DNA of 64,000 nucleotides from Maritimibacter alkaliphilus HTCC2654. GTDB taxonomy: Bacteria > Pseudomonadota > Alphaproteobacteria > Rhodobacterales > Rhodobacteraceae. The translations under genes were made by a program, and so were the position numbers. Positions 19,368-62,387 of this stretch are shown piece by piece. The stretch's first letter is position 1. The number at the start of each line of letters is the position of its first letter. Below the pieces are notes generated by a model. That model was not told the DNA's origin, did no database searches, and worked only from the letters and a program-made list of their open reading frames with translations. Location of the stretch: positions 1,728,231 through 1,792,230 of the forward strand of contig NZ_CH902578.1 in NCBI RefSeq assembly GCF_000152805.1, read 5' to 3'.

Positions 19368-19457
19368 GGAGACGTGGCCGAGTGGTCGAAGGCGCTCCCC
19401 TGCTAAGGGAGTAGGCGGGAAACCGTCTCGAGGGTTCGAATCCCTTCGTCTCCGCCA
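19368..19457 (+). tRNA. tRNA-Ser (anticodon GCU)
   Basis: A 90-base class II tRNA with CCA encoded. The acceptor stem GGAGACG pairs with CGTCTCC; the D-arm is TGGCCGAGTGGTCGAAGGC; the anticodon loop CTGCTAA gives GCU, reading AGC/AGU; the long variable arm and GGTTCGAATCC T-arm are present. A tyrosine recombinase gene begins 150 bases downstream, so the 3' end is the likely attachment site of an integrated element. Confidence 0.96.
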
Positions 19458-19549
19458 CCTTTCATCGCTAACTTCCAGCCCTAATGCACTGTTTTTGAAG
19501 TGAAAATAGGCAACTTCCCTGTCTCAGCTTAGTCGCCCCAGCCGATTTT

Positions 19550-19580
19550 GCTATACAAATCGCTATACGTTTTGCTCTAC
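19550..19580 (+). repeat. Three heptamer direct repeats before the integrase gene
   Basis: GCTATAC at 19550, GCTATAC at 19562 and GCTCTAC at 19574 are spaced by exactly 12 bases and end 26 bases before the integrase ATG. The regular spacing suggests an operator or arm-type recombinase sites. Confidence 0.5.
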
Positions 19581-19606
19581 ATTGCGCGCGCGAAGGTGAG
19601 GTAACA

Positions 19607-20878
19607 ATGGCGATCAAAACCCGTGGAAAGAAGCTCTCCCTCTACAGAAGGGTTCCAAAAAGGTATGAATCGGTCGAGCCGCGCAAGTTCATCTGGCTGT
19701 CTTTGCACACAGACAGCATGTCACAGGCCGAGGCGAAAGCAGGTCCGGCTTGGGAGCAGTTGGTGGCCGGGTGGGAGGCGAAGCTGGCCGGTGACACATC
19801 CGACGCAGAACAGCGTTTTGAGGCGGCTCGTGAACTCGCGGAGGCGCGCGGCTTCCGCTATATGCGCGTGGAAAAGGTCGCCCAACTGCCCATGGACGAG
19901 CTACTAGATCGGATCGAGGCGGTCCCGGTCAAAAAAGGCAAGCCAGACCTAATAGAGGCGGCCGCGCTTCTCGGTGGCGCGAAGGAATCCGAGATCACTG
20001 TCACACGCGCCCTGAAGCTCTACTGGAATCTGGCGCGAGAGAAGACCCTCGGCAAGAGCGCTGACCAGGTTCGCAAGTGGGAGAACCCTCGGAAGAAGGC
20101 CATCAAGACGTTTATCACTGTCGTGGGCGATAAGCCCATATCCGAGATCACAGGCGATGACATGCTCGATTTTCGCGCCTGGTGGCTGGACAGGATCGAG
20201 AACGAGGGTCTGTCCCCCGGCAGCGCCAACAAGGACCTCATTCATCTCGGAGAGGTTCTGAAAACCGTGAACAAGATGAAGCGCTTGAACCTGGTTCTCC
20301 CCCTGTCCGATCTCAGCTTCAAAGAAGGCGAAGCCGTCCCGCGGCCGCCATTTTCGGACGCCTGGATCAGAGACAAGATCATGGAGCCCGGCGCCTTGGA
20401 CGGGTTGAACGAGGACGCACGTTTCATTCTGCTGGCAATGATCAACACCGGCGCTCGACCGAGCGAGCTGGCAGCTCTATCAGCCCCTCAGATATGCCTT
20501 GACGGCGACGTGCCGCACATTTCCATCGAGCCAGTGGTGCGCCAGCTCAAGAGTGCCAACGCGCGGCGCGTGATCCCGCTGTGCGGCATAAGCCTGACGG
20601 CCATGCGCGCCCGTCCGGAGGGCTTCCCGCGCTATTGGGACAGCTCTGCCAGTCTTTCAGCCACCGTGAACAAATTCCTTCGGGCAAATGGTCTCATGGA
20701 GACACCGAAACACTCGTTATATGGGCTGAGACACAGTTTCGAAGACCGAATGCTCGCCGCCGGCGTCGATGAGCGAATTCGACGCGACCTGATGGGCCAT
20801 GCGCTCGATCGCGAGCGCTACGGCAAAGGCGCAAGCTTGACACACTTGCATTCGATCATTCAGCCGACGGCCTTGTAA
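19607..20878 (+). CDS. int: Tyrosine recombinase (phage/island integrase)
   Basis: A 423-residue site-specific recombinase. Catalytic residues can be placed: R284 in NTGARPSELAAL, box II YGLRHSFEDR (R375, H376), H398 in MGHALD, and the nucleophile Y405 in RERYG. The N-terminal 130 residues and a SAM-like core-binding domain (about 130-235) precede. Its place 150 bases after tRNA-Ser in the same direction is the standard arrangement of an element integrated at the tRNA 3' end. GGTGAGGTAACA supplies the ribosome site. It marks the left edge of the island that holds the CRISPR system. Confidence 0.93.
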   Translation: MAIKTRGKKLSLYRRVPKRYESVEPRKFIWLSLHTDSMSQAEAKAGPAWEQLVAGWEAKLAGDTSDAEQRFEAARELAEARGFRYMRVEKVAQLPMDELLDRIEAVPVKKGKPDLIEAAALLGGAKESEITVTRALKLYWNLAREKTLGKSADQVRKWENPRKKAIKTFITVVGDKPISEITGDDMLDFRAWWLDRIENEGLSPGSANKDLIHLGEVLKTVNKMKRLNLVLPLSDLSFKEGEAVPRPPFSDAWIRDKIMEPGALDGLNEDARFILLAMINTGARPSELAALSAPQICLDGDVPHISIEPVVRQLKSANARRVIPLCGISLTAMRARPEGFPRYWDSSASLSATVNKFLRANGLMETPKHSLYGLRHSFEDRMLAAGVDERIRRDLMGHALDRERYGKGASLTHLHSIIQPTAL

Positions 20879-22015: not shown

Positions 22016-22020
22016 TCCTA

Positions 22021-27471: not shown

Positions 27472-27873
27472 ATGACCACGAAACCGCACGAGCACACCCA
27501 ACTTGCAAAATTTGTCGAGCGCCGGGTTCTCGAACTGAAATCCAAGAAGACGCAGGCCGACATCGCGGCACAGGCTGGATACGTGAACCAGAACATGATC
27601 ACGATGATCAAGCAGGGCCGCTCAAAGGTCGCACTTGATCGCATCCCGGCGCTCGCTGGGGCTCTCGAATGCGATGCGGCCTACCTCATGCGTCTCGCGC
27701 TCGAACAGGCGATCGGCGGCACGGCGGCGGCCACGCTCATCGAGGTGTTCGGCGACCCCGTGACGGCGAACGAACAGGCGTGGTTGCGTGAAATCCGTGC
27801 CGCCTCTGGACATACAGACCCGAGGCTCACCGCGCGCTCACAGGCGAGCATCCGCACTATCTTCGGGAAGTGA
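27472..27873 (+). CDS. XRE-family helix-turn-helix regulator
   Basis: A 133-residue protein. Residues 17-70 form a Cro/C1-type helix-turn-helix (KTQADIAAQAGYVNQNMITMIKQGRSKVALDRIPALAGAL). The C-terminal 60 residues are of unknown type, helical. It starts 72 bases past the last CRISPR repeat and is followed after 4 bases by a 48-aa gene. Such regulators are common in mobile elements. Control of the island or the CRISPR locus is possible but not shown. GAGGAAGA precedes the ATG. Confidence 0.85.
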   Translation: MTTKPHEHTQLAKFVERRVLELKSKKTQADIAAQAGYVNQNMITMIKQGRSKVALDRIPALAGALECDAAYLMRLALEQAIGGTAAATLIEVFGDPVTANEQAWLREIRAASGHTDPRLTARSQASIRTIFGK

Positions 27874-27877
27874 CATC

Positions 27878-28024
27878 ATGGAAAAGCGTGAAAATGAGGA
27901 CCTGACACCGAACGAGCGCGATTGGCTTCGTTTCTTGCGCGACATATCGAACGGTCGGGATGTCGCCATCACTTTGCGCAGGGTGCAGGTGCTCAGGCGG
28001 GTGTGCGAGAGAAAGCGGGCATAG
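27878..28024 (+). CDS. 48-aa hypothetical protein, partner of the XRE regulator
   Basis: The ATG at 27878 is 4 bases after the regulator stop, so the two are co-transcribed. The sequence has the core NERDWLRFLRDISNGRDVAITLRRVQVL. The same core recurs in a frame at 62388-62642 (QDWLHFLRDVGNGKNVTITLRQVQLL), showing that this small protein is a real, conserved family. Function unknown; helical and basic at the end. Confidence 0.65.
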   Translation: MEKRENEDLTPNERDWLRFLRDISNGRDVAITLRRVQVLRRVCERKRA

Positions 28025-32746: not shown

Positions 32747-32851
32747 AGGAGACGGGCTGCCGTTCGTCGACATTGCGGCGGACGGCGGCGACCACCTCAT
32801 ATTTGTGACCAAGACCGGCAACCAGCATTTCGATTGTGCCCCGTTTCGGTC

Positions 32852-32957
32852 GGGCCAGGAATGGCTGGGTCAATCCGCCGCGCCGGATCCCTTTCTTTCT
32901 GGAGAGGAAGTTCGCTGCGGACAGCCTCGTGCGCGACATAGCAGACGAGCTCCTCAA
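32852..32957 (+). repeat. Module-boundary element, copy 1
   Basis: Shares the core GGAATGGCTGG, then CGCCGCGCCGGATCCCT and GCGGACAGCCTCGTGCGC with copy 2 at 39738. In the shared frame both read NGW(V/I)(N/D)(P/T)PRRIP and then FAADSLVR. Direct orientation to all other copies. It is probably a relic of a gene within an older mobile element. Confidence 0.65.
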
Positions 32958-33372
32958 GTTGGAAGATCTTCTCGAATGCCACCTCAAGCGTATTCTGCCG
33001 CCATCCGGGCCACCGTCCCATACATTGAAAAGGCCAAAGATTCTCGGGTGCGGACCGACTTCGCGCCAGCCCCCCCGGCGCGATGCTGCGTCAGAGACGC
33101 TCTGCGCGCGCCCTGGGCGCGCCATCATAGGCCCGGAGTCCTTTGGCGCCTGCAATGGCCCTGGTGCGCCTGGCGGGCAGCGCAGCGCCTCTGACAGCAC
33201 ACACCTAATTGTCCGTGAAACTGGCCATCCGGATCTGGTGGCCCGGTTTAAGCGCTAGTGCATGTCCGGCTGGTTGGACCCCGATCGAGTGAACGGCCCT
33301 CGGCGTGGGTTCATCGCTTTCCACTAAAACCGGACTAGTCCATGAGGCACGGAGATGAGCTAGGTCGAAGTC

Positions 33373-39537: not shown

Positions 39538-39647
39538 GGTGGACCGACTGTATCCGCCACGTCCCGATCACGGAAGATGCCCGTCGGGGACCAGCTAACC
39601 TGCATTAAGTCGATTCTGAAACACATATTGAGAAGTCGCTTTTCAGA

Positions 39648-39912
39648 CGCGAGTCGACGACCGGGGCAAGTAAACGCTCAGCGAAAAAGGCGCTTCCTTA
39701 ACCTGCTTGTCCTCATCAGTGTGATGTCGGATTTCGGGCGGGGAATGGCTGGATCGACACGCCGCGCCGGATCCCTCCAATTCTGAAAAGTAGGTTCGCG
39801 GCGGACAGCCTCGTGCGCAACATGGCAGACGCGCTTCTCGAAAATCACCCCAGACACATTGTGGACGCGTTGAACCAGAAAGGCCTGCACAACTGGCTCA
39901 ACGATGAGTGAA
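39648..39912 (+). repeat. Module-boundary element, copy 2 (best preserved)
   Basis: Begins with CAGACGCGAGT and the codons for QTRVDDRGK then TAA, closely matching the last codons of rhaI at 52075 (QTRVADRGR then TAG). It continues with GGCGCTTCC, CCTCATC and GTCGGATTTC, as does 52075-52200. The core at 39738-39840 matches copy 1. The frame NGWIDTPRRIPPILKSRF continues to LHNWLNDE and TGA at 39910, the longest surviving stretch. Confidence 0.7.
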
Positions 39913-40090
39913 CCCAAGAGCGGGCATGGACTTTCGAAAAAAGGCGCGGAAACTTCTTGAAAAAGAATACTTCCGGCGCGCCTGATACTGACATTGGCTA
40001 TTCTGATTAGCCCCGGCTTGTTCTCTTCTGAGCGCGGTCACACGACTTGTTTCTCGTTTTTGATGCACAGGGCTAAGCGAAGGCGAAGTC

Positions 40091-40162
40091 CTAGAAATGC
40101 ACGATAAGTGCAAGTAGGATCGGTTCTGGTGCCGGCAGCACGCTCGGCACCAAACCTCCCAT
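40091..40162 (-). repeat. 72-base micro-ORF repeat, copy 2
   Basis: ATG-to-TAG frame of 24 codons on the minus strand (MGGLVPSVLPAPEPILLALI...). Homology to copy 1 extends about 35 bases past the ATG side. Two TGA codons lie directly before the ATG, so the frame cannot be part of a longer one here. It lies 87 bases past the rhaK stop. Confidence 0.5.
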
Positions 40163-40248
40163 TCATCAAACGATGTCGCACGCGGTTGTATTAGTTTTTT
40201 TTTGAGCGTCAGATATGAACCACAAGGAGGTGCAAGTGGTGGACGCGG

Positions 40249-41607
40249 CTAGGCAGCAGTGTTCACTTCCCCAAACCAATGTTGTGCATACTCTTTGAGC
40301 TCGTTCAGTCGGTAGACTTCGGGCGCACGGGTTGCTGGGGCTGGAATGGCACCACAATCGGCTAGGAGTGAAGCCCCGATACTCGTGCCTGTGGCAGAAT
40401 GCGACAACTGAACCGGACGGTCAGTGGCAGCTTCGAGCATTGCAATGAAATCAATGTTGCGCGCGAAGGGGCCCTCGACGATGCTCGGCCCGCGCGCTCC
40501 TATCATGGCCAAGCATTCGGCTGTCATAAGGGCGAGATACCACGAGAGTGCGACGTTTTTTTCGCCGGGCGTCATGCTGGCGTTACTCCAACCGCCCGGC
40601 CGGTTCGGGAATGGGCCGGATCCAGTTTGGACGGCTGGGAGCAGAAAGTGGCGTTCGTTTAAGACGCGTTCGACATCCTCGGCGGTCGGTGCTGCGATTT
40701 CGCGCTTCATCTGTTCGAATTCGCGACCACCCATGAAGCGGGCGCTTGGGGTTGGATTGCCTAAGCCGTTGACGTTGATCAATGCATCGCGGAAGGGGTC
40801 GAGCACGACCGGCGCGCCACCGACCGCCATGGAAACCACCCACGTTCCGGTCGAAACGACCGAGAAAGGACCATCCATCTGACGCAGATGTGGAAGCAGG
40901 GAGGCGTTCGAGTCGTGGATGCCGGACATGACCGGCGTCTCCTCGGCCAATCCTGTGATTTCGGCGATCTCGGGCAGTATTGCGCCCGCGATATCTCCGG
41001 CCAACGCCAGGGGAGCCATTTTGTCCTCAATGCCGAGCGCGGCGACCAATGTGGAGAATCCGGCGGTATGTGGATTCCACAGGTCTGTATGACACCCGAG
41101 CGAAGTGAGTTCGTTGGTGAAGTGCCCCGTAAGGCGACCCGACCAGTATTGCGGATAGCTCACGACCTGTCTGACGCGGCCACGTAGCCCCACTTGCGTT
41201 TTGAGCAGCCAATGCAGCTGGGCCCCCGCGTTGAGCCCTACCGGCAGGCGTGGGGACCCCGTCTCAGAAAAATTCGGCCGGAGCGCATCGTAAGCATGTG
41301 CGAGTTCCTCCGGCCCGGTGAACTCGTAATCCATCACCGGCGTGGCCAGCTTACCGACTCCATCCAGGAGCACGAAAGTCGCGCCATGGGTCGTGACACT
41401 GATCCGGTCGATGCCGTGTTTGGCCTCGAAGATCGACAGGCTCTCAAGCAGGAATTCCCAGATCCCCTCCACGTCGAAATGCGGATAGGGCGGCCCGGGG
41501 CGCACCGTGTTGGGCCGCGTCACCACGTCCAGCTCGCTCATGGTGTCTGTGTCGACCAGCGCCACCTTTGCGTTGGTCTTGCCTATGTCGAGAACGGCGA
41601 CATGCAT
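40249..41607 (-). CDS. rhaK: Rhamnulokinase-type sugar kinase (FGGY)
   Basis: 452 residues from the ATG at 41607, which overlaps the rhaM stop by one base (TGATG). FGGY-kinase fold: VAVLDIGKTNAKVALVD (phosphate-1 motif), then SVVSTGTWVVSM (phosphate-2) and EGPFARNIDFIAML near the end. In Rhizobium the homologue phosphorylates the keto-sugar and is also needed for rhamnose transport. Last gene of rhaRSTPQMK. The frame runs on to 41697, but that is rhaM read out of phase. Confidence 0.9.
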   Translation of the reverse strand: MHVAVLDIGKTNAKVALVDTDTMSELDVVTRPNTVRPGPPYPHFDVEGIWEFLLESLSIFEAKHGIDRISVTTHGATFVLLDGVGKLATPVMDYEFTGPEELAHAYDALRPNFSETGSPRLPVGLNAGAQLHWLLKTQVGLRGRVRQVVSYPQYWSGRLTGHFTNELTSLGCHTDLWNPHTAGFSTLVAALGIEDKMAPLALAGDIAGAILPEIAEITGLAEETPVMSGIHDSNASLLPHLRQMDGPFSVVSTGTWVVSMAVGGAPVVLDPFRDALINVNGLGNPTPSARFMGGREFEQMKREIAAPTAEDVERVLNERHFLLPAVQTGSGPFPNRPGGWSNASMTPGEKNVALSWYLALMTAECLAMIGARGPSIVEGPFARNIDFIAMLEAATDRPVQLSHSATGTSIGASLLADCGAIPAPATRAPEVYRLNELKEYAQHWFGEVNTAA

Positions 41608-50862: not shown

Positions 50863-52104
50863 ATGAGCTATCAATCCGCCAAGGACGCGTTCGCCGAATG
50901 GGGCGTCGACACCGAAGCCGCGATGGAGGCGCTGGCCCGAATCCCGATCTCGGTGCATTGCTGGCAGGGCGATGATGTGGTGGGGTTCGAGGGCCAGAGC
51001 GGCGCGTCCGGCGGCGGGATCCAGGCCACCGGCAACCACCCCGGCCGCGCGCGCACCCCGGACGAATTGCGTGCCGATCTAGAGTTCGCCTATTCGATGA
51101 TCCCCGGCAAGCATCGCCTGAACCTCCATGCATTCTACATGGACACGGAGGAGACGCCGGACCGCGATGAGATCGAATACCGACATTTCGCGCCCTGGGT
51201 CGACTGGGCCCGCGAACAGGGCATCGGGCTCGACTTCAACCCGACGTTCTTCGCTCATACCAAAGCCGACGACAACTTGACGCTGTCCCATCCCGACAAG
51301 GGCATCCGCGACTTTTGGATCGAACATGGCAAACGTTCGCGCGAGATCGCCGCGAAGATGGGAAAGGAACTCGGCACGGCGGCCGTGAACAACATCTGGG
51401 TGCCGGACGGGTCGAAGGATATCCCGGTCGATCGCATGGCCGCGCGGCAGCGGCTCGAAGCCTCACTCGACCAGATGTTGGCGCCCGCCCATGACGCGGC
51501 GCATCTGCGCGACGCGGTGGAGAGCAAGCTCTTCGGGATCGGGGTCGAGGCGATGACCGTGGGCAGCCACGAATTCTACCTGGGCTACGCGATCCGCAAG
51601 GGGACGCTTCTTTGCCTCGACATGGGGCATTTCCACCCGACCGAGAACATCGCCGACAAGTTGTCCTCCGTTGCGCTGTCGGTGGACGAACTGCTCTTGC
51701 ACGTGAGCCGGCCGATGCGCTGGGATTCCGACCACGTGATCCTCTTGGACGACGCGATCCGGGGCATGGCGCAGGAGCTGGTCTTCGCCGACCTGCTGGG
51801 GCGCACGCACATCGGGCTCGACTTCTTCGACGCCACGATCAGCCGCACCGCGGCCTGGGTCATCGGCGTGCGCAACATGCAGAAGGCCTTGCTAGAGGCG
51901 CTCCTCATGCCACAGGCGCGGTTGAAAGAAGCCGAGGCGGCGCTGGACTTCACCACGCGCTTCATGCTGACCGAAGAACTGAAGGACATGCCCTTCAGCA
52001 CGGTCTGGGCCGAGTTCTGCGCGCGTAACGAGCGGCCTTGTGGCAAGCGACTGATTGACGAATTGGCGGGATATCAGACGCGAGTTGCTGACCGGGGCAG
52101 GTAG
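50863..52104 (+). CDS. rhaI: L-rhamnose isomerase
   Basis: 413 residues, near the usual 415-430. The TIM-barrel metal sites are visible: HCWQGDDVVGFEGQSGASGGGIQATG, LNLHAFYMDTEE, GLDFNPTFFAHTKAD, LDMGHFHPTENIADK, WDSDHV and THIGLDFFDATI. It converts L-rhamnose to L-rhamnulose. GGCAGGGAGGAAAA precedes the ATG. Its last codons (QTRVADRGR) are repeated with the downstream DNA at 39648, on the other side of the rha locus. Confidence 0.95.
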   Translation: MSYQSAKDAFAEWGVDTEAAMEALARIPISVHCWQGDDVVGFEGQSGASGGGIQATGNHPGRARTPDELRADLEFAYSMIPGKHRLNLHAFYMDTEETPDRDEIEYRHFAPWVDWAREQGIGLDFNPTFFAHTKADDNLTLSHPDKGIRDFWIEHGKRSREIAAKMGKELGTAAVNNIWVPDGSKDIPVDRMAARQRLEASLDQMLAPAHDAAHLRDAVESKLFGIGVEAMTVGSHEFYLGYAIRKGTLLCLDMGHFHPTENIADKLSSVALSVDELLLHVSRPMRWDSDHVILLDDAIRGMAQELVFADLLGRTHIGLDFFDATISRTAAWVIGVRNMQKALLEALLMPQARLKEAEAALDFTTRFMLTEELKDMPFSTVWAEFCARNERPCGKRLIDELAGYQTRVADRGR

Positions 52105-52280
52105 AAAATCCGGCAGAAAGGGCGCTTCCCTAATGCGCTTTTCCTCATCGGTGGGACGTCGGATTTCTGGCGGGAATGGCAACTTGTCTGTCGTGTCCGC
52201 GCTGTTGGACCTGGGCCAGGAATGGCTGGCTCGACACGCCTCGCCGGGTTCCTTCAATACTGCATAGGAAGATTCGAGGT
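52075..52280 (+). repeat. Module-boundary element, copy 3, overlapping the end of rhaI
   Basis: Starts within the last ten codons of rhaI and continues past its stop, matching copy 2 from 39648: CAGACGCGAGT, GACCGGGGCA, GGCGCTTCC, CCTCATC, GTCGGATTTC, then the core at 52213 (GGCCAGGAATGGCTGG, TCGACACGCC). The frame NGWLDTPRRVPSIL is kept. Same orientation as copies 1, 2 and 4. Confidence 0.68.
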
Positions 52281-52310: not shown

Positions 52311-52560
52311 AAGGTTTACATAGGGTTTACATAGCGCCGATACTGGGTTGCCTACGTAAACCCTCGGGATGCTCGGACCAGCCCATATTCACCCTTTGTT
52401 CTCGGCTAGGGTTTACCTAAAGTTTACATAAAGTTGACAGATCCGGACCCAAAACCACGGTTTTCGGCGATCTATGTAAACCCTGCGACCACAAAACCTC
52501 AACAAAACAGGCTTCTGAGCAGAAGCGCGCCGCAGACAGGGTTTACATAAACCGTCGCTC
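52311..52560 (+). repeat. Iteron-like block A
   Basis: About seven GGGTTTACAT-type motifs in both orientations within 250 bases (for example 52313, 52323, 52408, 52421 direct; 52354 and 52473 inverted; 52538 direct), plus TATTCACC, AGTTGACAGAT and AACAAAACAGGC. The same motifs recur in the same order at 58964-59210. It resembles a replication or partition region. Confidence 0.65.
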
Positions 52561-53337
52561 ACACAGAAACGCGCACCAGAGCAGACCAACGCATCACCAG
52601 CTACACCGACACTCAGAAGACAACGGACAGCATCTGGTGACGAGCACATCGAGCCCTAGAGCACACGCAACACGACAGGTGACGACCACTGAGGACGAAC
52701 GGCATCGAGGATGCGGAGTTGAGTCACGCATGTCTGAATGACGAGGCAGGTGCGGACAGGTCACGGAAGGTCGGTATTGCTGCCTGATGCCGTGTTGATG
52801 ATCTAGCTAGACAGCTGTGTAGGTAGGTAGCTGCGGACCCAGATCCGATGAGCAGCTGATGATCTGGCACGCTGCTTCGCCGGTGAGCGCGATCGTTGCC
52901 GAGGAGGTTAGAAGCGCAACGCCCTTAATGTCCTAGTTCCCGCCAGCAACGCGAACGCTCCCATCCACCCAGGCGCTCGGGCCCTCGAACTAGTCGCGGT
53001 TTTGACCAGCCAACGCATCGTCGTGTTGAGGTTAGCGTATGACACGCGGGCAGCCGGTGCGGTAGTGGGGTTCACAACGAGCCTCCTATAAGGATGTGAC
53101 CCCGTCACGGATACATTCATGCAACGTCGCGGTCCTGGGTTCTTCCTCTTTTGTGAATGGGAGTCGAGCCAGCGCATACAGGTTCCGCAGGACGAAAGCA
53201 CCCTTCGGTTTGTTGCCTATCGAGGTCCACATCGACTTGACCGAGAAGCAGAGAAGTCGATCACATCCACGTCAACTGGAACGATTTCAACCCGACCTAC
53301 CGAAATGCGAAGCCACGACCGCTATAATGGAGGTGCA
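52561..53337. other. Gene-free region before the recombinase operon
   Basis: 780 bases without a supported gene. It holds short direct repeats (TAGGTAGGTAG near 52821) and, at its end, GCTATAATGG (TATAAT at 53323-53328), which recurs before the HUH gene at 59455. I see no other structure. Confidence 0.4.
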
Positions 53338-53502
53338 GTGAATAAGGCGCGCTTCCATCAAGGATTTCACCCATCGCCGCGACGAGAGAAGGCCTTGGGG
53401 GGATCGGATAGGGTTTCTCTCACCTCAAGGCAGTATCAACGTGAAGAGCTACATATCAAAGTAGCTACCGCTCTACAGGACATAGAAGATGAAGATGAGT
53501 AA
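53338..53502 (+). CDS. 54-aa protein preceding the serine recombinase
   Basis: GTG at 53338, with GGAGG 4 bases upstream, opens a 54-codon frame (NKARFHQGFHPSPRREKALG..., ending LQDIEDEDE). Its end overlaps the recombinase start by 14 bases, so translation is likely coupled. Basic first half, acidic tail. No family recognised; a recombination accessory factor is possible. Confidence 0.45.
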   Translation: MNKARFHQGFHPSPRREKALGGSDRVSLTSRQYQREELHIKVATALQDIEDEDE

Positions 53503-54280
53503 AAGCGAGACGGATCTAGGCAAGTTGGCCGTGGGCTACGCACGTGTCTCAACCACGGGGCAAGGAGATAAAGGGACTAGCTTGGAGGCGCAGCGCCGCG
53601 CAATCCGGACCTTCTCTGACCACATGGGCTATAGGCTGATTGAGGTCTTCGAGGATGCTGCGTCTGGTGCGCACGAGAAGAGCTTCAATATGCGACCGAA
53701 CCTCAACCACGCCCTTGATTGTATGAAAGAGAACGATGCGATTCTCGTCGTTTATGACTGGGATCGTTTCTCCCGGTATAGAGGTGTTCCGGAGCAGTTG
53801 AAGAAGCGCGGCATATCCAAAGATCGTGTATTATGCGTGAAGTCAGGTGAAGATCTGCGGCGCGCCTCGGAAGCTGCGGTATTCGAGCGTGCTTCCTTCG
53901 ATCGCGAGATGATCTCGCGTCGCACGAAGGATGGTATGGCTGCAAAGAAACGCGCAGGCGAGACGTTCGGCAATCCCGACATCAAGAACGTGCAAGCGTC
54001 CGGTGTGAAGGCCTACAGCGCGAAGGCTGATCGGGTCGTTCATGAGATTGTGGAACACATCCGGCGCGGGACGCTCGACGATAAAGATAGCTGCGGCGTA
54101 GTAGCCAAAAAATTGAACGCTGCGGGCCTGCTCACTGCGCACGATAAGTCCTGGAACAAGGACCGTGTGAAAGGTCCACTTCGCAAGGCTCGAGCACTAA
54201 TCAAGGCCGAGCAATCATCGGAGTCAGACGACATAGATGAAGAAGGCTACGAGCATGAGATTACATTCGGTATGTTCTGA
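53489..54280 (+). CDS. Serine recombinase (resolvase/invertase family)
   Basis: 263 residues (start 53489 or the ATG at 53495). Catalytic domain: GYARVSTTGQ with the nucleophile Ser at about residue 21, VYDWDRFSRY, and the E-helix SFDREMISRRTKDGMAAKK. A Recombinase-type region follows (about 165-245), as in mobile-element resolvases somewhat larger than Tn3 types. It lies in the module delimited by iteron blocks A and B and may excise or resolve it. Base composition is more AT-rich than that of its neighbours. Confidence 0.9.
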   Translation: MKMSKSETDLGKLAVGYARVSTTGQGDKGTSLEAQRRAIRTFSDHMGYRLIEVFEDAASGAHEKSFNMRPNLNHALDCMKENDAILVVYDWDRFSRYRGVPEQLKKRGISKDRVLCVKSGEDLRRASEAAVFERASFDREMISRRTKDGMAAKKRAGETFGNPDIKNVQASGVKAYSAKADRVVHEIVEHIRRGTLDDKDSCGVVAKKLNAAGLLTAHDKSWNKDRVKGPLRKARALIKAEQSSESDDIDEEGYEHEITFGMF

Positions 54281-54529
54281 CGCGCGCAGGCTGGCTGTTG
54301 AGGTCGGTGAGCATGATCCGGGCGCCCCGAGCTACCAGAGTCACACAACGCGTTCGGCGCGCTCTATCCGGTCCGCCGTTGCTGACATCGAAGAATCCGA
54401 CGGATAGCGAGTGCGACCAGACATCGCACCACCCCGTCGGCATGACGGCCCCGCAGAGACTCTCTGTTCGCGCTCAGGGGCACGGTCGTGTGTTTGGAGG
54501 CCTCGGCGCCCGAAATGACTTTGACGCGC

Positions 54530-54970
54530 TCAGCGGGCAGCACAGCGCCTCTGGGCGCGTTCGGCCAGCGCGGCCATGACAGGAAGGCCCGAGAGATCCG
54601 AGACGAAGATGGTGCTGTCATCTACGGGCCAGTCGAGCGACATCTTGGGGGCGCCGCCGTGGCGCCATTCGATCCGGTCGCCGGGATGCGCCTGACGAAG
54701 CCAGCGCGCCGCCGGGCCATGGCCCGCGTGAAGCACGCAATCAACGTCGAAGCGTCCGTCAGCGTGCCAATGCCGGTAGGTGAAGGCGCGCGGTCGAGCG
54801 GGCGCCCCGGCGCCGCATTCGGGAAACCGCAACCGGCAATGGCCGCCATGCGGCCGGTCCCGCGGCAGCGCTTCCCCGTCCAGCGGCGCGAATGTCACCC
54901 TCCGCATGGTCAGGTCGAGCGGGAGGACCCGCTCAACCCGGACCGCGTGAAAGCCTTCACTCGACGCCAT
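54530..54970 (-). CDS. Siderophore-interacting protein, 3'-truncated
   Basis: 146 residues, against about 240-270 for the family. The FAD-binding half is clear: MRRVTFAPLDGEAL, PRAFTYRHWHADGRFDVDCVLHAGHGPAARWLR, then GDRIEWRHGGAP. The NAD-binding half ends soon after FVSDLSGLPVMAALAERAQ, where the frame runs into unrelated DNA. It would reduce ferric siderophores for the importer that follows, but the loss of the C-terminal domain makes activity doubtful. Its start overlaps the binding-protein gene end by 14 bases on the same strand, so it was once the next gene of that operon. Confidence 0.72.
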   Translation of the reverse strand: MASSEGFHAVRVERVLPLDLTMRRVTFAPLDGEALPRDRPHGGHCRLRFPECGAGAPARPRAFTYRHWHADGRFDVDCVLHAGHGPAARWLRQAHPGDRIEWRHGGAPKMSLDWPVDDSTIFVSDLSGLPVMAALAERAQRRCAAR

Positions 54971-55865
54971 AGATGCGCGCGATGTCGTCGAGCATCAGTT
55001 GCGCGGCGAGAATGCCGCCGGCGGTATTCCAGATCGCGTCGCTGACGTCGTGCACACGGCCGGCCTGAACCGCCGACAGCGATTGCCAGAGTGGGTCGTT
55101 CAGGACCTCTTCGGCCACGGCGTCGCCTTCGCCGTCGCCGGTGTCGTATGTGAAGTGGAAGATCCGGTCGCCGTCCATGTCGGGAATGCTTTCCTTGCCC
55201 GTGCGGATCGCGAAGTCCTCGACATTCTGATTCTCGGGCCGGTCGAAGCCGAGATCCTGGAGCAGAACGCCGGAAAAACTGTCGAGTTGGTAGATGCGGA
55301 TCTGCCCTGGCAGAAACCGGATGACGGAGACCTTTTCCTTAAGAGCATCGCCCAGTGACGCGCTCAGCGTATCGACACGCGCTTCGTAATCAGCGATGGC
55401 GGCCGCGCCCTCTTCCTTCAGTCCGAGCGCATCAGCGTAAAGGCGGAAATTGATCTGCCAGTCACCGCGCAGTTCAGCCGACATGACCGTTGGCGCGATG
55501 GCCGAAAGCTGGGGAAAGATCTCTTCGTGCCGCTGGGCGTTGCCGAGAATCAGGTCGGGTTGCAACGCAGCGACCAGTTCAAGATTCACCGCGCTCTCGG
55601 TGCCGACGGGCTGCGCATCGCCCATCTGCTCGGTGATGTGATCCCACCACGGATCGCCGTTCCAGGAGTTCGCGGCCCCCACCGGCACCACGCCGAGCGC
55701 AAGCAGGGCCTCGGTCCCCTCGTTGGTCAGGACGACCACGCGCTGCGGTTCTTCCGGAACGTCGGTGGTCCCCAGCGCATGGTCGATCTCGCGGGCCTGA
55801 AGCGGTGCGATGTCCAGCAGCGCCACGACCGGCAGCGCGGCGAGGATATGTCGGAAGAGTTGCAT
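54957..55865 (-). CDS. Siderophore/haem ABC transporter binding protein (FecB/FhuD-like)
   Basis: 302 residues from the ATG at 55865, with a signal peptide ending near LQA. Peripla_BP_2 fold: RVVVLTNEGTEALLALGVVPVGAANSW, then NLELVAALQPDLILGNAQRHEE and ADALGLKEEG. It binds a ferric complex. It is divergent from the two permeases and ATPase at 55968-58748, sharing a 100-base control region with an iron-box-like palindrome. The frame to 55940 is unsupported. Confidence 0.9.
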   Translation of the reverse strand: MQLFRHILAALPVVALLDIAPLQAREIDHALGTTDVPEEPQRVVVLTNEGTEALLALGVVPVGAANSWNGDPWWDHITEQMGDAQPVGTESAVNLELVAALQPDLILGNAQRHEEIFPQLSAIAPTVMSAELRGDWQINFRLYADALGLKEEGAAAIADYEARVDTLSASLGDALKEKVSVIRFLPGQIRIYQLDSFSGVLLQDLGFDRPENQNVEDFAIRTGKESIPDMDGDRIFHFTYDTGDGEGDAVAEEVLNDPLWQSLSAVQAGRVHDVSDAIWNTAGGILAAQLMLDDIARIYGVE

Positions 55866-55911
55866 GAGGCGGCATCCTTTGTTGAGTGTTTCAGTCGGAT
55901 TTGCTGCGAAT

Positions 55912-55926
55912 TGATTGACTAAATCA
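55912..55926. promoter_or_regulatory. Iron-regulator box candidate (TGA-N9-TCA)
   Basis: TGATTGACTAAATCA fits the RirA IRO-box form TGA-N9-TCA, and the overlapping GACTAAATCAGTC is also palindromic. It sits between the divergent siderophore genes. Which regulator binds is unknown. Confidence 0.6.
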
Positions 55927-55967
55927 GTCGGGAATGTCAATCGACCGTCGAAGAAGGTGCATCAGCA

Positions 55968-56951
55968 ATGAAGAAAACCGCCACGCTCCTTGTGCTGGTC
56001 CTCGGCCTCGCAATCGGCGCGAGCCTCCACTTGGGGCTAAATCTCTATTCGCCGGCAAAGGTTCTGGCCGCGCTCGGGGGTGCCGAGGGCACGGATGCGA
56101 TCATCATCAGGACCCTGCGCATCCTCCGCACCCTGGTGGCGATCTGCGCCGGTGCGGCGCTCGGCCTGTCGGGTTTTCTCGTCCAGTCCGCGACGCGCAA
56201 TCCGCTTGCCGAGCCGGGGCTTCTTGGGATCAACGCCGGTGCGGCGTTCTGCGTCGTTTTGGGGGTCACGTCTTGGGGCACGGTCGGCCTCGCGGCGATG
56301 GGAGCGCTGGCCCTCGCGGGCGGGCTTTCGACCACGGGTTTCTTGTTCGCCGTCGTCGCAGCGGCCGGGCGGACCGCCGGGCCGGGCACGACCCTCCTCG
56401 CAGGGGTGACGCTGGCGGCCATGCTCGCCTCGCTGACCCAGGTTCTACTGCTGGTGGATGAAACGGCGCTGGAAACCATGTTGTTCTGGCTCTCGGGGGG
56501 GTTCGCCGACCGGAGCCTCGCTGTGCTCGCGCTCGGACTGCCCTCGCTCGCCGTCGGGATGATCGGGGCGCTGGCCATATCGGGGTCGCTGGACGTGCTG
56601 CGGCTCGACGACGACAGCGCCGGGGCGCTTGGTGTGCACGTGACCGGGGTCAGGATGGGGGCGCTCGCTTTGGGCGCCCTGCTCGCTGCCGGCGCGGTCG
56701 CGATGGCCGGGCCGGTCGTGTTTCTCGGTCTCGTGGCCCCACATCTGGCCCGCCGCATCGCTCCGCGCACCAACAGCGCGGGCTGGATCGTCGTCACCGT
56801 GCTGACCGGCGCGATTATCGCGGTCCTGGCCGACATCGTGGCCCGGCTCATCGTCCTGCCTGGAGAGGCGCCGGTCGGCGCTGTGCTTGCCCTCGTCGGC
56901 GTTCCCATCCTGGTCAGCCTCCTGCGTCGCAAGGCCGAGGCCGCGCTGTGA
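55968..56951 (+). CDS. FecCD-family ABC permease (first)
   Basis: 327 residues with about nine or ten membrane helices. FecCD patterns: RTLVAICAGAALGLSGFLVQSATRNPLAEPGLLGINAGAA near residues 55-95, LSGGFADRS, and VAMAGPVVFLGLVAPHLAR. It pairs with the next permease to carry an iron complex inward. Its end overlaps the second permease by 4 bases. Confidence 0.93.
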   Translation: MKKTATLLVLVLGLAIGASLHLGLNLYSPAKVLAALGGAEGTDAIIIRTLRILRTLVAICAGAALGLSGFLVQSATRNPLAEPGLLGINAGAAFCVVLGVTSWGTVGLAAMGALALAGGLSTTGFLFAVVAAAGRTAGPGTTLLAGVTLAAMLASLTQVLLLVDETALETMLFWLSGGFADRSLAVLALGLPSLAVGMIGALAISGSLDVLRLDDDSAGALGVHVTGVRMGALALGALLAAGAVAMAGPVVFLGLVAPHLARRIAPRTNSAGWIVVTVLTGAIIAVLADIVARLIVLPGEAPVGAVLALVGVPILVSLLRRKAEAAL

Positions 56952-57967
56952 GCCGGATCGTCGCCCCCCTGCGCCTTGCCGGGCTGGCCGCTTGTCTCGC
57001 GGTGCTCGCCGTCGTGGCGACGGGCCTCGGGTCGAGCGCCCTGCCACTCGACCGCGTGACCGCCGCGCTCTTCGGGCGGGGCGAGGCGATGGATGCGGTG
57101 ATCGTCTGGACCTTGCGCTTGCCACGGGTGGCGCTCGCCGTGCTCGCCGGCATGGCGCTCGCGCTGGCGGGGGCGCTCCTCCAACGGGTAACGCGAAACC
57201 CGGTCGCCGCGCCCTCGATCCTCGGGATCACCGACGGGGCCGCCGTGGGGGTTGTCGCATTCCTCTGGATCTTCTCGGACGATGCCAACGCGCTCGCGGT
57301 CTCGATCCATTGGCAGCGGCTTGCCGCTGCGCTCGGCGCCCTCGTTTTCGCGGCTCTCGTTGCGGTGCTCGCCCTGCTCGATCCGCAGGGCCTCAGCCCG
57401 TTGCGCATCATTCTCTACGGCATTTCACTTGCCGCCCTAGCGAAGGCGGCGGTGACGCTGATGATGATCCTGGGGCCGGTCTACCGCGCAGGGCAGGCCC
57501 TGACCTGGCTGACGGGATCGGTCGGTGCGGCCCATTGGCACGACGTGGGAACGGTCGCGGCCGGCCTGATAGTCGCCACACTAATCCTCGTGATGGTCGG
57601 CCGCCGCGTCCGGCAACTCGTCCTCGACCCGGAGACCGCCCAGGCGACCGGCGTTTCGGTCGGTCGGGCGCAGCTTCTGTTCCTCGCCCTCACGGTCGTG
57701 CTCACCGCGCTCGCTGTGTCACAGGTCGGTGCGGTCGGTTTCGTGGGTCTCATCGCGCCGCATATCGCGCGCCTCATTCACGGCCAGTTCACCGGGGGAT
57801 ACCTCGCGGCCACGGCGATGATCGGTGGCGTGCTCATCCTCGGCGCCGACACGCTGGCCCGGACGCTGGCCCCGCCCGTCGAACTGCCCGCCGGGGCCCT
57901 CACCGCGCTGGTCGGCGCCCCCCTTTTTCTCTGGCTGCTGTTGAAAGAAAGGCGAACGCATGGCTGA
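56948..57967 (+). CDS. FecCD-family ABC permease (second)
   Basis: 339 residues, about ten membrane helices. Patterns RLPRVALAVLAGMALALAGALLQRVTRNPVAAPSILGITDGAA, WLTGSVGAAHW and VSQVGAVGFVGLIAPHIAR. Overlaps the ATPase gene by 8 bases. Forms a heterodimer with the preceding permease. Confidence 0.93.
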   Translation: MSRIVAPLRLAGLAACLAVLAVVATGLGSSALPLDRVTAALFGRGEAMDAVIVWTLRLPRVALAVLAGMALALAGALLQRVTRNPVAAPSILGITDGAAVGVVAFLWIFSDDANALAVSIHWQRLAAALGALVFAALVAVLALLDPQGLSPLRIILYGISLAALAKAAVTLMMILGPVYRAGQALTWLTGSVGAAHWHDVGTVAAGLIVATLILVMVGRRVRQLVLDPETAQATGVSVGRAQLLFLALTVVLTALAVSQVGAVGFVGLIAPHIARLIHGQFTGGYLAATAMIGGVLILGADTLARTLAPPVELPAGALTALVGAPLFLWLLLKERRTHG

Positions 57968-58748
57968 AGCTCTCACCCGTTTGCGCAATGTCACGGCGCG
58001 CTATGACGGTGTCACCGCGCTCGAGACGGTCGACCTCAACCTTCCCAAGGGCCTTATCACCGCGTTCTGCGGCCCGAACGGGAGCGGAAAGTCCACGGCG
58101 CTGCGCGTCATGCGCGGCCTGCACGTTCCGTCGATGGGGACCGTCGAGGTCGCCGGCCGTCCGCTCGGCGACTGGATGCCCAGGGAACTCGCGAAATCGG
58201 TCGCGATGCTGAGTCAATCGCCCGACGCGCCTCCGGAATTGACGGTGCAGGATCTCGTCCGGCTCGGTCGCTTTGCGCACCAACGTGGCTTCCGCGGGCA
58301 ACGGGCGGAGGATCGAATCGCCTGCGAGAGGGCGCTGGCGGCGACTGAGATGACCCACCTCGCCGAACGGCCGATCGGGCGGCTCTCGGGGGGGCAACTA
58401 CAACGCGCGTGGATCGCGATGACCATCGCGCAGGACGCACCAAACATCTTCCTCGACGAACCGACAAACCATCTAGACGTGTCGCATGCGTTCGAGGTGC
58501 TCGAACTCGTGAAGCGTCTCAATCGCTCCGAAGGCCGCAGTTTCGTGCTTGTGCTGCATGACCTCAACATGGCGATGCGCTACGCCGATCATATCGTTCT
58601 GTTCGACGAGGCGCACGTAGAGGCGGCCGGCCCCACCCGAACTGTCCTGACGGAGCGCCGGATCTCCGAGGTCTTCGGCATCGGCTGCAAGCTGATCGAC
58701 ATCGAGGGGCAGGACGTCCCCACTGTTGTTCTGCTGCCGGGTCAATAA
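57960..58748 (+). CDS. Iron-complex ABC transporter ATP-binding protein (FepC-like)
   Basis: 262 residues. Walker A GPNGSGKST, signature LSGGQLQRAWIAMTIAQD, Walker B IFLDEPTNHLD and switch VLHDLNMAMRYADH, the FepC/FhuC form. Energises the two FecCD permeases. Its C-terminal tail ends in a short helix. Last gene of the plus-strand operon; boundary element copy 4 lies 120 bases on. Confidence 0.95.
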   Translation: MAEALTRLRNVTARYDGVTALETVDLNLPKGLITAFCGPNGSGKSTALRVMRGLHVPSMGTVEVAGRPLGDWMPRELAKSVAMLSQSPDAPPELTVQDLVRLGRFAHQRGFRGQRAEDRIACERALAATEMTHLAERPIGRLSGGQLQRAWIAMTIAQDAPNIFLDEPTNHLDVSHAFEVLELVKRLNRSEGRSFVLVLHDLNMAMRYADHIVLFDEAHVEAAGPTRTVLTERRISEVFGIGCKLIDIEGQDVPTVVLLPGQ

Positions 58749-58867
58749 GCTCTAGACTCCGTCGAAAGAGCGAAACGGGCATCCGCTTAGGCCATGGCAA
58801 CAGACTGCTTTTTATGGATTCGTGTTAAGGGTGTGAGGCCACCGCTCGATCACGCGCACTTTGGCCC

Positions 58868-58920
58868 GGGCCAGGAATGGCTGTAGCGACACGCCACAGC
58901 AGGCCCGTAGCGTCTTCGAA
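58868..58920 (+). repeat. Module-boundary element, copy 4 (eroded)
   Basis: GGGCCAGGAATGGCTG then CGACACGCC match the other copies. After that the match fades (NGCSDTPQQ in the shared frame). It lies 45 bases before iteron block B, as copy 3 lies just before block A. Confidence 0.55.
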
Positions 58921-58963
58921 AAGACGCTCCTCTTTTGCTGGGCGCCAAGTAAGAGACCCGGAC

Positions 58964-59210
58964 AGAGGGTTTACATCGGGTTTACATAGCGCCCGCTCCG
59001 GGTTGCCCTATGTAAACTCGCGGGACGTTAGGAAGGGAAATATTCACCATTTGTTCTCATTTTGGGTTTACATGGAGTTTACATAGAGTTGACAGATTTC
59101 ATCCCAAAACCGCGTTTTTTGGTGATCCATGTAAACCCCGCGACGCGAAAACCCCAACAAAACAGGCATCTGCGATGAGATCAGGCCAGGCGAAGGTTTA
59201 CATCGACCTC
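58964..59210 (+). repeat. Iteron-like block B
   Basis: Collinear with block A: GGGTTTACAT motifs at 58967, 58978, 59064 and 59075 (direct) and ATGTAAAC at 59010 and 59129 (inverted), with TATTCACCATTTGTTCTC, AGTTGACAGAT and AACAAAACAGGC. The two blocks are direct repeats 6.65 kb apart around the siderophore module. Confidence 0.65.
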
Positions 59211-59486: not shown

Positions 59487-59999
59487 ATGCTAATGAACCG
59501 ACATCTGGACATCACGCGAATGACATCGGGCACGAACAGGAAATTGCTCCAACGCGAGCTGCGCAAATGGCTCGCACGCTACACTTTCACGCACTTTGTC
59601 ACTTTGTCGTCCAATCACCAGAGCTTCAGCTACCAGTGGATGAAGCAACAGTTGAGAGAGTGGGATGCGCGCGTAAACCACTCTCTGAACGGCCGGCGGT
59701 GGCAAAAAAGACCGGACGAGCGCCTGGTTTGGTTCGCATTTCCGGAGAAGCTCACCACCAATCCGCACTGGCACCTTCTGGTGGCGGTTGATGACCGCGC
59801 TGAGACGCCCGCTCGTGCTGCGCGCCTTGCAGATTTTCCCATTTACGGCAACCGGCATTGGATGAACCTATGTTACCAAGGATCCTTCGACGCACAGCGC
59901 ATTGAATCAAAGGGAATAATCGAGTATGCTACGAAGGTGAGCGCCAACCCGGCGTATCTGGAAAGGTTCGTGCTCTCGAGGGAGTTCATGAACATCTAG
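59487..59999 (+). CDS. HUH endonuclease / rolling-circle Rep-like protein
   Basis: 170 residues (start ATG 59487 or 59493). Three replication-initiator motifs appear in order: a motif-1-like FTHFVTLSSN (about 35-43), motif 2 NPHWHLLVAV with H94-x-H96 (the HUH metal site), and motif 3 YATK with Tyr147-x-x-Lys150 (nicking Tyr). Such proteins nick single-stranded DNA at an origin or transposon end. It is short, with no helicase domain. It follows iteron block B, which may hold its target. Its closest family is not clear to me. Confidence 0.65.
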   Translation: MLMNRHLDITRMTSGTNRKLLQRELRKWLARYTFTHFVTLSSNHQSFSYQWMKQQLREWDARVNHSLNGRRWQKRPDERLVWFAFPEKLTTNPHWHLLVAVDDRAETPARAARLADFPIYGNRHWMNLCYQGSFDAQRIESKGIIEYATKVSANPAYLERFVLSREFMNI

Positions 60000-60416: not shown

Positions 60417-60764
60417 AAGTTCTGGCACGACAACATGGACACCCGGTCTTTATCGCGAACCAGAATGCGCCCGGGGTCGTTCTTTCGACGAACAGCGAGT
60501 TCAATGAGGAGCAGCTTCAACAACTGGTCCACGAGCACCCTGAGGCACTTCCCATCAACGAAATCGACGCGGCCTTCGAGGGTGCGATTTCGGTCTGCCG
60601 CGAGTTGAACACACCCGCCGGCCCGATCGACAACTTCCTCATCACACTTTCTGGGCTCCCGGTCATCGTCGAATGCAAGTCATGGCGCAACCCGCAAGCG
60701 TGCCTTGAGGTGGTGGGCTAAGTGCTCAATTATGCGAAAGCGCTCGCGCTGGTCGTCGACTGAA
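60417..60764 (+). pseudogene. Broken PD-(D/E)XK nuclease-like gene
   Basis: A frame without a start carries STNSEFNEEQLQQLVHEHPEALPINEID, then IDNFLITLSGLPVIVECKSWRNPQA, whose Asp and Glu-x-Lys form a PD-(D/E)XK core. After EVVG comes TAA (60720-60722) where relatives have Gln, so a CAA-to-TAA change is likely. The homology goes on as LNYAKAL for 10 more codons before TGA. Both ends and the interior are damaged. Confidence 0.65.
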
Positions 60765-60829
60765 ATTGAGTGTGATGCTGCCCCGCGCGGTCGCACTCTC
60801 GATCCGAACACAACAAAGGACCTACTCGA

Positions 60830-62137
60830 ATGACCAGTGAGGCTCTCAAGCATGGTCTTCGCAAAAACGCCGGCCAGGTCGCCCACCAGCTCATCCAGGT
60901 GATGCTGGTCGGCTTTGCCATCGGGATGACCCGAACGGTAGTTCCCGCCATGGCCGAATCCGAGTTTGGGCTTGAGCGCGGTTCGTTCTTGTTGCTGGCC
61001 TCCTTCGTCGTGGCCTTCGGGGCGGTGAAGGCCGTGATGAACTTTGTCGCTGGTCGCTGGTCGGAACGCATCGGTCGCAAGCGCGTGCTGTTCTGGGGCT
61101 GGGTCGTGGCGCTGCCGATCCCGGCGATCATCTGGGCGGCACCCGATTGGAGCTGGATCGTGGGGGCCACCGTGTTGCTTGGTGTGAACCAAGGTCTGTG
61201 CTGGTCGATGACCCAGACAGCGAAGCTGGACATGACGCGCGCAGACGAGCGCGGGCTGACGATGGGGCTCAACGAATTCTCCGGCTATGCCGGTGTTGCC
61301 CTTGCCGGCATCCTCACCGCCTACGCCGCCGAGTGGTTCGGCGCGCGCACGGGGCTTCTTGTCTTCGGTTTCGCGGTGATACTGGTCGCGCTTGCTCTGA
61401 CGGTGGTCTGGGTGAAGGATACCCTACCTTGGGCGAAGGCCGAGAGCGCCGCCCATAAGGCCGCGCTGCAGAAGAACCCGCCACGCTATCCCCCGGGCGT
61501 CCCGGCACATCCAACGACGAGCGAAGTGTTCGCTTTGATGAGTTGGCGTGACAAGAGGCTCTTCGCGATCAGCCAAGCGGGCCTGGTCGAGAAATTTGTA
61601 GACGCGCTCGTCTGGGTCCTTTTCCCTGCCTTTCTTTCAACGCAAGGCTCCGGCCTGACCGAAATCGGCTGGATCGTCGGCGTCTATGGCTTCGTCTGGG
61701 GGGGCTCGCAGCTCTTGACAGGGCGGCTGTCGGACCATGTGGGCCGGTTATGGCCCAACGTGCTCGGCATGTGGATCAGCGGCGCCGGCGTGGCGATGGT
61801 CGTGTTGGGCACCGGTGCGTATTGGTGGTCCATTTCTGCCGGCGTGGCAGGTTTCGGAATGGCGCTCCTGTATCCGAACCTTTCGGCGGCCGTGGCCGAT
61901 ATCACCCCGCCCATCTGGCGCGGCTCTGCCATCGGGATCTACCGGTTCTGGCGTGACCTTGGCTACGCCATCGGCGCGCTCGGGCTCGGCCTTGCGGCCA
62001 GCCTCGCCGGGGCACCGGAAGCTGCGTTCTGGTTCGTAGCAATCTCGATGTTCATATCCGGTGCCTTGCTGTTGTGGCTCTCGGAAGAAACGCATCCGCG
62101 CTTGAATCCTGCCATTCCAGAGAATTCCGATTGCTGA
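60830..62137 (+). CDS. MFS transporter
   Basis: 435 residues and about twelve membrane helices. The motif A region GRWSERIGRKRVLFWG follows helix 2, and a mirrored GRLSDHVGRLWPN follows helix 8. A hydrophilic loop of about 50 residues lies between helices 6 and 7. Substrate unknown; the nearby copper-type genes give no firm hint. AAAGGACC precedes the ATG. Confidence 0.9.
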   Translation: MTSEALKHGLRKNAGQVAHQLIQVMLVGFAIGMTRTVVPAMAESEFGLERGSFLLLASFVVAFGAVKAVMNFVAGRWSERIGRKRVLFWGWVVALPIPAIIWAAPDWSWIVGATVLLGVNQGLCWSMTQTAKLDMTRADERGLTMGLNEFSGYAGVALAGILTAYAAEWFGARTGLLVFGFAVILVALALTVVWVKDTLPWAKAESAAHKAALQKNPPRYPPGVPAHPTTSEVFALMSWRDKRLFAISQAGLVEKFVDALVWVLFPAFLSTQGSGLTEIGWIVGVYGFVWGGSQLLTGRLSDHVGRLWPNVLGMWISGAGVAMVVLGTGAYWWSISAGVAGFGMALLYPNLSAAVADITPPIWRGSAIGIYRFWRDLGYAIGALGLGLAASLAGAPEAAFWFVAISMFISGALLLWLSEETHPRLNPAIPENSDC

Positions 62138-62387
62138 ATTCCTTGCCCGCCGTCTAGGCCTCATGGTCATTTTGCTTCTCGCGGTCTCGGTCAGGGGCTT
62201 TTGCCCAAGTGGATGTGCGCTGCTTCGACGATCTGTCAGACACAGAGAGACCAGCCGCGGCGCTGAATTGGCTCGCCAACCAAACCAGAACCTTCATTAA
62301 CGTCTTACGCACTACCATCCGGTCCGCCGACACTGACAGCGAAGATGCTGACAAATTACGATCGCAGTCGGTCTTGCAACGGGAGCT

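What the first reader, a model, noticed from the sequence alone, without database searches (positions are those of the whole stretch)
52311..59210. Duplicated iteron-like blocks flank the siderophore module
Blocks A (52311-52560) and B (58964-59210) contain the same series of GGGTTTACAT motifs in direct and inverted orientation, with shared inter-motif sequence. Each follows a boundary-element copy. They look like plasmid or phage replication regions. Recombination between them would release a 6.65-kb circle with a serine recombinase and an iron importer.
Basis: partly seen in the sequence, partly recalled or inferred. Interest (0 to 1): 0.66.

Follow-up and report, generated by a model that had tools for sequence, protein, structure and literature searches.

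The report
Phage-type origin blocks in defence islands
The two repeat blocks are copies of a stretch of non-coding DNA that tailed phages of related bacteria also carry, probably a replication start site, and similar copies sit beside anti-phage genes in many marine bacteria, so bacterial islands may be imitating a phage's replication signal.

Summary
Blocks A and B (Maritimibacter-genus genome, chromosome-size contig) each hold seven GGGTTTACAT-type motifs, 13 matches at one mismatch against 1.2 expected, and occur nowhere else in the genome. Each block plus its "boundary element" is one conserved non-coding unit. Relatives lie in about 20 other Rhodobacterales loci, often as HTH gene, small ORF, boundary element, block, next to an anti-phage system (CRISPR, restriction, GmrSD, DSR2, TIR-NLR) and often a DUF927 helicase, a serine recombinase, a tyrosine integrase or (as at B) an HUH nuclease. 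The new point: the same unit is on two tailed-phage contigs. One shares 623 bp at 81% with a Ruegeria megaplasmid copy, and Rhizobium phages related by gene order carry the same architecture with other motifs. I read the blocks as phage-type replication-origin regions carried by integrative, satellite-like defence islands. A and B are 79% identical with no exact match over 16 bp, and A is closer to another strain's block (86%), so they are separate acquisitions and a 6.65-kb circle is unlikely; the HUH gene also lies outside it. Origin function, and whether copies hijack or decoy phage initiators, is inferred.

The parts
52213..52253 (+). boundary element L (copy A), leader of block A; core GGGCCAGGAATGGCTG, tail CTCGCCGGGTTCC
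   Evidence: conserved in 15 aligned copies in at least 9 genomes, nearly always directly before a block
52312..52548 (+). block A: half-site 1 (52312-52363), half-site 2 (52409-52483: three tandem 11-bp motifs ending AAGTTGACAGAT, short A/T tract, inverted ATGTAAACCC), 7th motif 52539-52548
   Evidence: model R1 78.4 bits (R1 was built partly from it)
52550..52760 (+). T-poor (10% T) non-coding tract after block A, also T-poor in other copies and phages
   Evidence: not exceptional within the window, so weak
53489..54280 (+). serine recombinase, 263 aa, resolvase domain plus partial Recombinase domain
   Evidence: Pfam PF00239 4e-20; 37% identical to a Cereibacter plasmid recombinase with a block upstream
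54366..54553 (.). R repeat, right end of the L-block-recombinase element; copies at 33003-33193 and in Maritimibacter EAC76
54530..58748 (.). iron-siderophore cargo: siderophore-interacting FAD protein (54530-54970 -), binding protein (54957-55940 -), permeases (55968-56951 +, 56948-57967 +), ATPase (57960-58748 +)
58868..58908 (+). boundary element L (copy B), leader of block B
58967..59203 (+). block B: same two half-sites and 7th motif
   Evidence: R1 71.0 bits (R1 was built partly from it)
59487..59999 (+). HUH-type Rep-like nuclease, 170 aa; FVTL, HWH and YxxK motifs invariant in 5 relatives; also follows a degenerate block in G216
60494..62352 (.). remnants of a nuclease-like ORF of the element (60494-60804 and 62212-62352) split by an MFS gene (60830-62137)
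27472..27873 (+). XRE/HTH gene of the family that precedes blocks elsewhere; here 24 kb away, directly after the CRISPR array
27878..28024 (+). small ORF that follows the HTH gene; remnant of a second copy at 62479-62620
32851..33194 (+). deletion remnant of the element: L, recombinase 3' end, R
39643..40258 (+). copy of the rhaA downstream flank, L and a recombinase remnant
19368..20878 (+). tRNA-Ser(GCT) (19368-19457) and tyrosine integrase with DUF6538 domain (19607-20878): probable island edge
   Evidence: no second tRNA-end repeat found downstream

Best explanation
Each block with its leader L is a phage-type replication-origin region carried by an integrative, satellite-like genomic-island family of Rhodobacterales. 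Proposed working: an initiator (a DUF927 helicase where the element encodes one, otherwise perhaps the initiator of an infecting phage with matching motifs) binds the 11-bp tandem motifs, melts the short A/T tract and starts replication of the excised element; the HTH protein probably controls it, and integrase and serine recombinase move or resolve it. In this window two such elements of different lineages, one with a recombinase and one with an HUH nuclease, have accreted and partly decayed around an iron-uptake cargo. Shown: the sequence unit, its homology to phage DNA, its recurrent HTH, recombinase, helicase and defence neighbours, and the independent ancestry of A and B. Inferred: origin function, the binding proteins, the satellite life style.
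For: Phage contig G476 (terminase, portal, tape measure, helicase, ParB-like genes) carries the block at one locus only, R1 60.8 bits, E 7e-17. Its block plus downstream tract is 80.7% identical over 623 bp to the Ruegeria AD91A megaplasmid copy and 76.7% to a Ruegeria conchae plasmid copy. A second phage contig has it upstream of a homologous gene. Rhizobium phages with that gene have the same architecture with CCTTTACAT or GATGTTGACA motifs, and B1VFA matches G476 in gene order. Order DUF927 helicase, HTH, block in EL53 and G364 mirrors SaPI, whose DUF927 Rep binds iterons directly downstream of its gene (PMC7581432). G360 shows integrase, HTH, L, block, GmrSD, serine recombinase within 11 kb. 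Defence genes beside block or HTH in about ten loci.
Against: No initiator is shown to bind the motifs. No DnaA boxes in host blocks. The GC-skew test around the block in phage B1VFA is inconclusive. Several copies, A and B included, have no DUF927 gene nearby. The conserved phage gene downstream of the block has no known function and its predicted structure failed. Motif resemblance in the Rhizobium phages is architectural: R1 matches only one, weakly (12 bits). No excised or replicating form has been seen.
Confidence: 0.6

Rival explanations
1. The block is the recombination site (res/att type) of the serine recombinase: recombinase subunits bind the motifs and strand exchange occurs in or near L.
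For: Recombinase follows the block in window A, in Maritimibacter EAC76 and on Cereibacter plasmids; recombinase-like genes lie within 8 kb in G282, G438 and G360. L-R deletion remnants and reshuffled gene cassettes lie between L copies.
Against: Both phage contigs and several island copies (AD91A, R. conchae, G386) have a block and no such recombinase found nearby; B has an HUH nuclease instead. The recombinases are only 44% identical between A and EAC76 although the blocks are 86% identical. Tandem 11-bp direct motifs do not look like resolvase subsites of paired inverted 12-mers.
Confidence: 0.15
2. The block is the operator array of the XRE/HTH protein, a repressor giving immunity against phages that carry matching sites.
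For: The HTH gene precedes the block in the same orientation in XHP0148, AD91A, R. conchae, EL53, G386, G282, G364 (two) and G360. Motif flanks differ between genomes as for a co-evolving binder.
Against: The block lies several hundred bp downstream of the HTH gene, not at its promoter. No HTH relative was found in the parts of the phages read, which keep the whole block and downstream tract.
Confidence: 0.12
3. The block is a partition (centromere) site.
For: Phage G476 and B1VFA carry ParA and ParB-like genes; single-locus repeat array.
Against: The par genes lie about 7 kb or more from the block; chromosomal copies have no par genes nearby.
Confidence: 0.07
4. One reading: a recent duplication flanking the module, which excises as a 6.65-kb circle.
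For: Direct orientation and equal 6655-bp offset.
Against: 79.4% identity, longest exact match 16 bp, A closer to another strain's block; no replication gene inside the circle.
Confidence: 0.03

Closest known systems
SaPI / SCCmec replication modules (DUF927 or Primase_Cterm Rep helicase with iterons just downstream)
   Same: Short iterons next to a DUF927 helicase gene in integrative elements that also carry recombinases (PMC7581432; our EL53, G364).
   Different: Here an HTH gene, a small ORF and leader L lie between; many copies lack a helicase; the block is homologous to phage DNA.
Phage lambda ori iterons and the plasmid-borne ori inhibition phenotype
   Same: Iterons plus A/T tract on a phage; plasmid copies of part of ori block infecting phages (PMC3349717).
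   Different: Lambda case is laboratory-made and its ori lies inside gene O; here natural copies sit in chromosomes and plasmids and the phage block is intergenic.
Lactococcal Per (phage-encoded resistance)
   Same: From general knowledge: a cloned phage origin protects cells by drawing off phage replication factors (McGrath 1999, seen here only as a reference).
   Different: Per was selected in the laboratory; not known to me as a natural defence-island part.
PLE and PICMI phage satellites
   Same: Integrative elements with integrase or large serine recombinase, iteron origin and defence or interference (PMC7145576, PMC10803314).
   Different: They use their own initiator and own origin; no AlpA or primase was found at A or B, and the hosts are Vibrionaceae.
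HUH Rep / G2P-type nucleases
   Same: FVTL, HWH and YxxK motifs; best fold match SIRV1 ORF119.
   Different: Stand-alone 170-aa protein, Pfam hit below the curated cut-off, no database phage or plasmid relative found.

Membership tests
Iteron-type replication origin | array of short direct repeats at one locus of the replicon | tested here: met
Iteron-type replication origin | cognate Rep/initiator gene next to the array | tested here: inconclusive
   DUF927 helicase adjacent in EL53 and G364, HUH at B and G216; none at A, AD91A, G386
Iteron-type replication origin | DnaA box | tested here: not met
   none in host blocks at 1 mismatch; one 1-mismatch site near the end of the phage1 stretch; many phage origins lack it
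Iteron-type replication origin | initiator binding and autonomous replication | not testable with these tools
   needs plasmid and EMSA assays
Phage satellite (PICI/PLE/PICMI type) | integrase with attachment at a conserved site | tested here: inconclusive
   tRNA-Ser plus tyrosine integrase 7 kb upstream of the HTH gene, integrase before HTH in G360; no second att repeat found
Phage satellite (PICI/PLE/PICMI type) | own replication module (primase/helicase) | tested here: inconclusive
   DUF927 in some relatives, absent around A and B
Phage satellite (PICI/PLE/PICMI type) | induction and packaging by a helper phage | not testable with these tools
   needs infection experiments
Resolvase res site | subsites made of paired inverted ~12-bp recombinase motifs next to the gene | tested here: not met
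   motifs are tandem direct at 11 bp with one inverted motif 30-55 bp away
HUH endonuclease | HUH metal-binding and YxxK catalytic motifs on the fold | tested here: met
   invariant H94-W-H96 and Y147..K150; fold matches SIRV1 ORF119 and, weakly, parvovirus NS1 and IS200 transposases

The most novel reading that the evidence does not exclude
Natural origin mimicry as defence: Rhodobacterales islands keep copies of the replication origins of local phages, differing in motif type between genomes, as decoys or as parasitic origins that capture the infecting phage's initiator and so starve phage replication, beside conventional defence genes.
Probability: 0.22. Interest if true: 0.92.

Novelty: new variant of a known kind. 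Interest (0 to 1): 0.68.

Why it matters
Known satellites carry their own origin and initiator. A non-coding unit that is shared by tailed phages and defence-bearing bacterial islands, without its own initiator in many copies, would mean that islands replicate with, or fight by sequestering, the phage's own initiator. It gives a sequence handle (L plus block) for finding such islands and links them to a phage lineage.

Tried and rejected
Plasmid replicon reading: the Cereibacter plasmid whose repeats were examined (NZ_CP090026) has separate 22-bp iteron-like repeats at 851-1019, on the other side of the record start from its ParA gene, so the block is probably not its plasmid origin. HUH nuclease in phage and plasmid collections and IMG/VR: nothing. 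Rfam: no RNA family. L as an RNA/DNA hairpin: the stem pairs in 82.5% of cells but shows no covariation beyond shuffles, so not claimed. CRISPR spacers of the window against the phage pieces: no credible match. GC-skew switch at the phage block: inconclusive. T-poor tract as a signature: not exceptional in the window. Weak family-census hits (E above 1e-4) and most IMG/VR pattern hits were treated as chance. The structure of the phage gene downstream of the block failed (pLDDT 38). 'L boundary' as an independent transposon end: it is the leader of the block, though L-R remnants exist without blocks.
Full report
Observation. The two blocks exist as described. Thirteen GGGTTTACAT-type matches (at most one mismatch) lie in the window, all inside 52312-52548 and 58967-59203, against 1.23 expected from shuffles. 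The shared tract has a constant 6655-bp offset from the 'boundary element' through the block, with 79.4% identity. In the whole genome (4.5 Mb, 7 contigs; window on a 4.0-Mb contig, C4:1728231-1792230) these are the only copies.

Anatomy. A block has two half-sites. The best conserved is RGGTTTAC..WAAGTTTAC..WAAGTTGACAGAT (three tandem motifs 11 bp apart, one helical turn), then a short A/T tract (CCAAAACC..GGTTTT), then an inverted ATGTAAACCC. The first half is a looser version. Just before it lies L, GGCGAGGAATGGCTG...CTCGCCGGATCCC, conserved in 15 aligned copies; a stem can be drawn but is not supported by covariation. The non-coding similarity between A and EAC76 goes on for about 770 bp, more conserved than the recombinase that follows (44% aa).

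Neighbours. Block A is followed by a small serine recombinase and the R repeat, block B by a 170-aa HUH nuclease (FVTL, HWH, YxxK invariant; fold match to SIRV1 ORF119, E 2.5e-3). In EAC76 the order L, block, serine recombinase, nuclease-like ORF, R recurs at another place. On Cereibacter plasmids the closest full-length recombinase relative (37%) has a block-like array upstream.

Family. A profile of half-site 2 (R1) plus pattern and similarity searches found relatives in Ruegeria XHP0148, the Ruegeria AD91A and R. conchae megaplasmids, EL53, G386, G282, G360, G364 (two), G438 (two) and G463 (four). At E <= 0.01 the census gave 14 of 395 family genomes, but only eight at E < 1e-4. In nine loci an XRE/HTH gene of one family, usually followed by a small ORF, precedes L and block in the same orientation. 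Known defence systems lie beside block or HTH: type II-C CRISPR (window; HTH 24 kb from block A), a type IIG enzyme in its place in EAC76, type I restriction (G386), type I-U CRISPR (Cereibacter plasmid), GmrSD (EL53, G016, G360), DSR2 and a McrB-like candidate (G463), TIR-NLR (G282), LmuB-like (AD91A, weak). No background rate of defence genes was measured, so enrichment is an impression. EL53 and G364 show DUF927 helicase, HTH, block in that order, the arrangement in which SaPI Rep recognises iterons downstream of its gene (PMC7581432).

Phages. Two IMG/VR contigs carry the block. G476 (62.9 kb) is a tailed phage (terminase, portal and tape-measure genes read from sequence; helicase, HslV, ParB-like genes by PHROGs) with the block at one locus. 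Its block and downstream tract match AD91A at 80.7% over 623 bp; a second AD91A stretch of 128 bp between L and block is also phage-like (86.7%), so phage DNA was joined downstream of L there, or the reverse exchange took place. The gene downstream of the block is homologous in the second phage (40%) and in ten Rhizobium phage records of 115-122 kb (33-43%). Upstream of that gene those phages have intergenic arrays of the same layout built from CCTTTACAT or GATGTTGACA (four phages examined). Island copies likewise differ in motif (GGG, AAAGG, GACG, GATG, GGTTGCAT classes). This fits a binder that differs by lineage.

Ancestry of A and B. A-EAC76 86.2%, A-B 79.4%, B-EAC76 77.0%; longest exact A-B match 16 bp. 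They came from different lineages. Remnants (L, recombinase 3' end, R) at 32851 and 39742 and beyond the window, and a rha operon and sulfatase/TRAP cluster reordered against EAC76, show a region built by repeated insertion and exchange near L copies. Whether the recombinase or ordinary recombination did this is open.

Conclusion. The best reading is a phage-type origin region in satellite-like, defence-bearing integrative elements; here two partly decayed copies border an iron-uptake cargo. Phage homology is shown (about 0.9). Origin function is inferred (about 0.65). Hijack versus decoy is open. Plasmid or phage copies of an origin are known to inhibit phage in the laboratory (lambda, PMC3349717; lactococcal Per, by reference only), which makes the decoy reading testable.

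Noticed in passing
window 21804-27394 and L100:313-5271: The type II-C CRISPR-Cas9 cassette is replaced, between the same flanks, by a 1652-aa type IIG restriction-methylation enzyme in Maritimibacter EAC76: a defence-cassette swap next to the HTH gene.
   Followed up: partly
window 39643-39749 and 52074-52180: A 107-bp piece of the rhaA 3' end and downstream flank is duplicated at 79%, one copy without rhaA, each before an L element.
   Followed up: partly
window 60494-62352: An MFS transporter gene splits a nuclease-like ORF that is whole in L024:12134-13357; 60784-62164 is 87-90% identical to the MFS locus of two other Maritimibacter genomes.
   Followed up: no
L034/L103, L035, L008: HTH genes of the family lie upstream of HUH nuclease genes in G216, G361 and G074; G361 has an AlpA-like ORF between them.
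   Followed up: partly
L127-L130 (G463): One genome holds four L-block copies, beside DSR2 and a McrB-like protein among others.
   Followed up: partly
L067:11506-11633: A 128-bp phage-gene fragment (86.7% to phage contig G476) lies between L and the block on the Ruegeria AD91A megaplasmid.
   Followed up: no
genome C4:1807710-1808155: Another L-R remnant lies about 15 kb beyond the window, near copper-resistance-like genes.
   Followed up: partly
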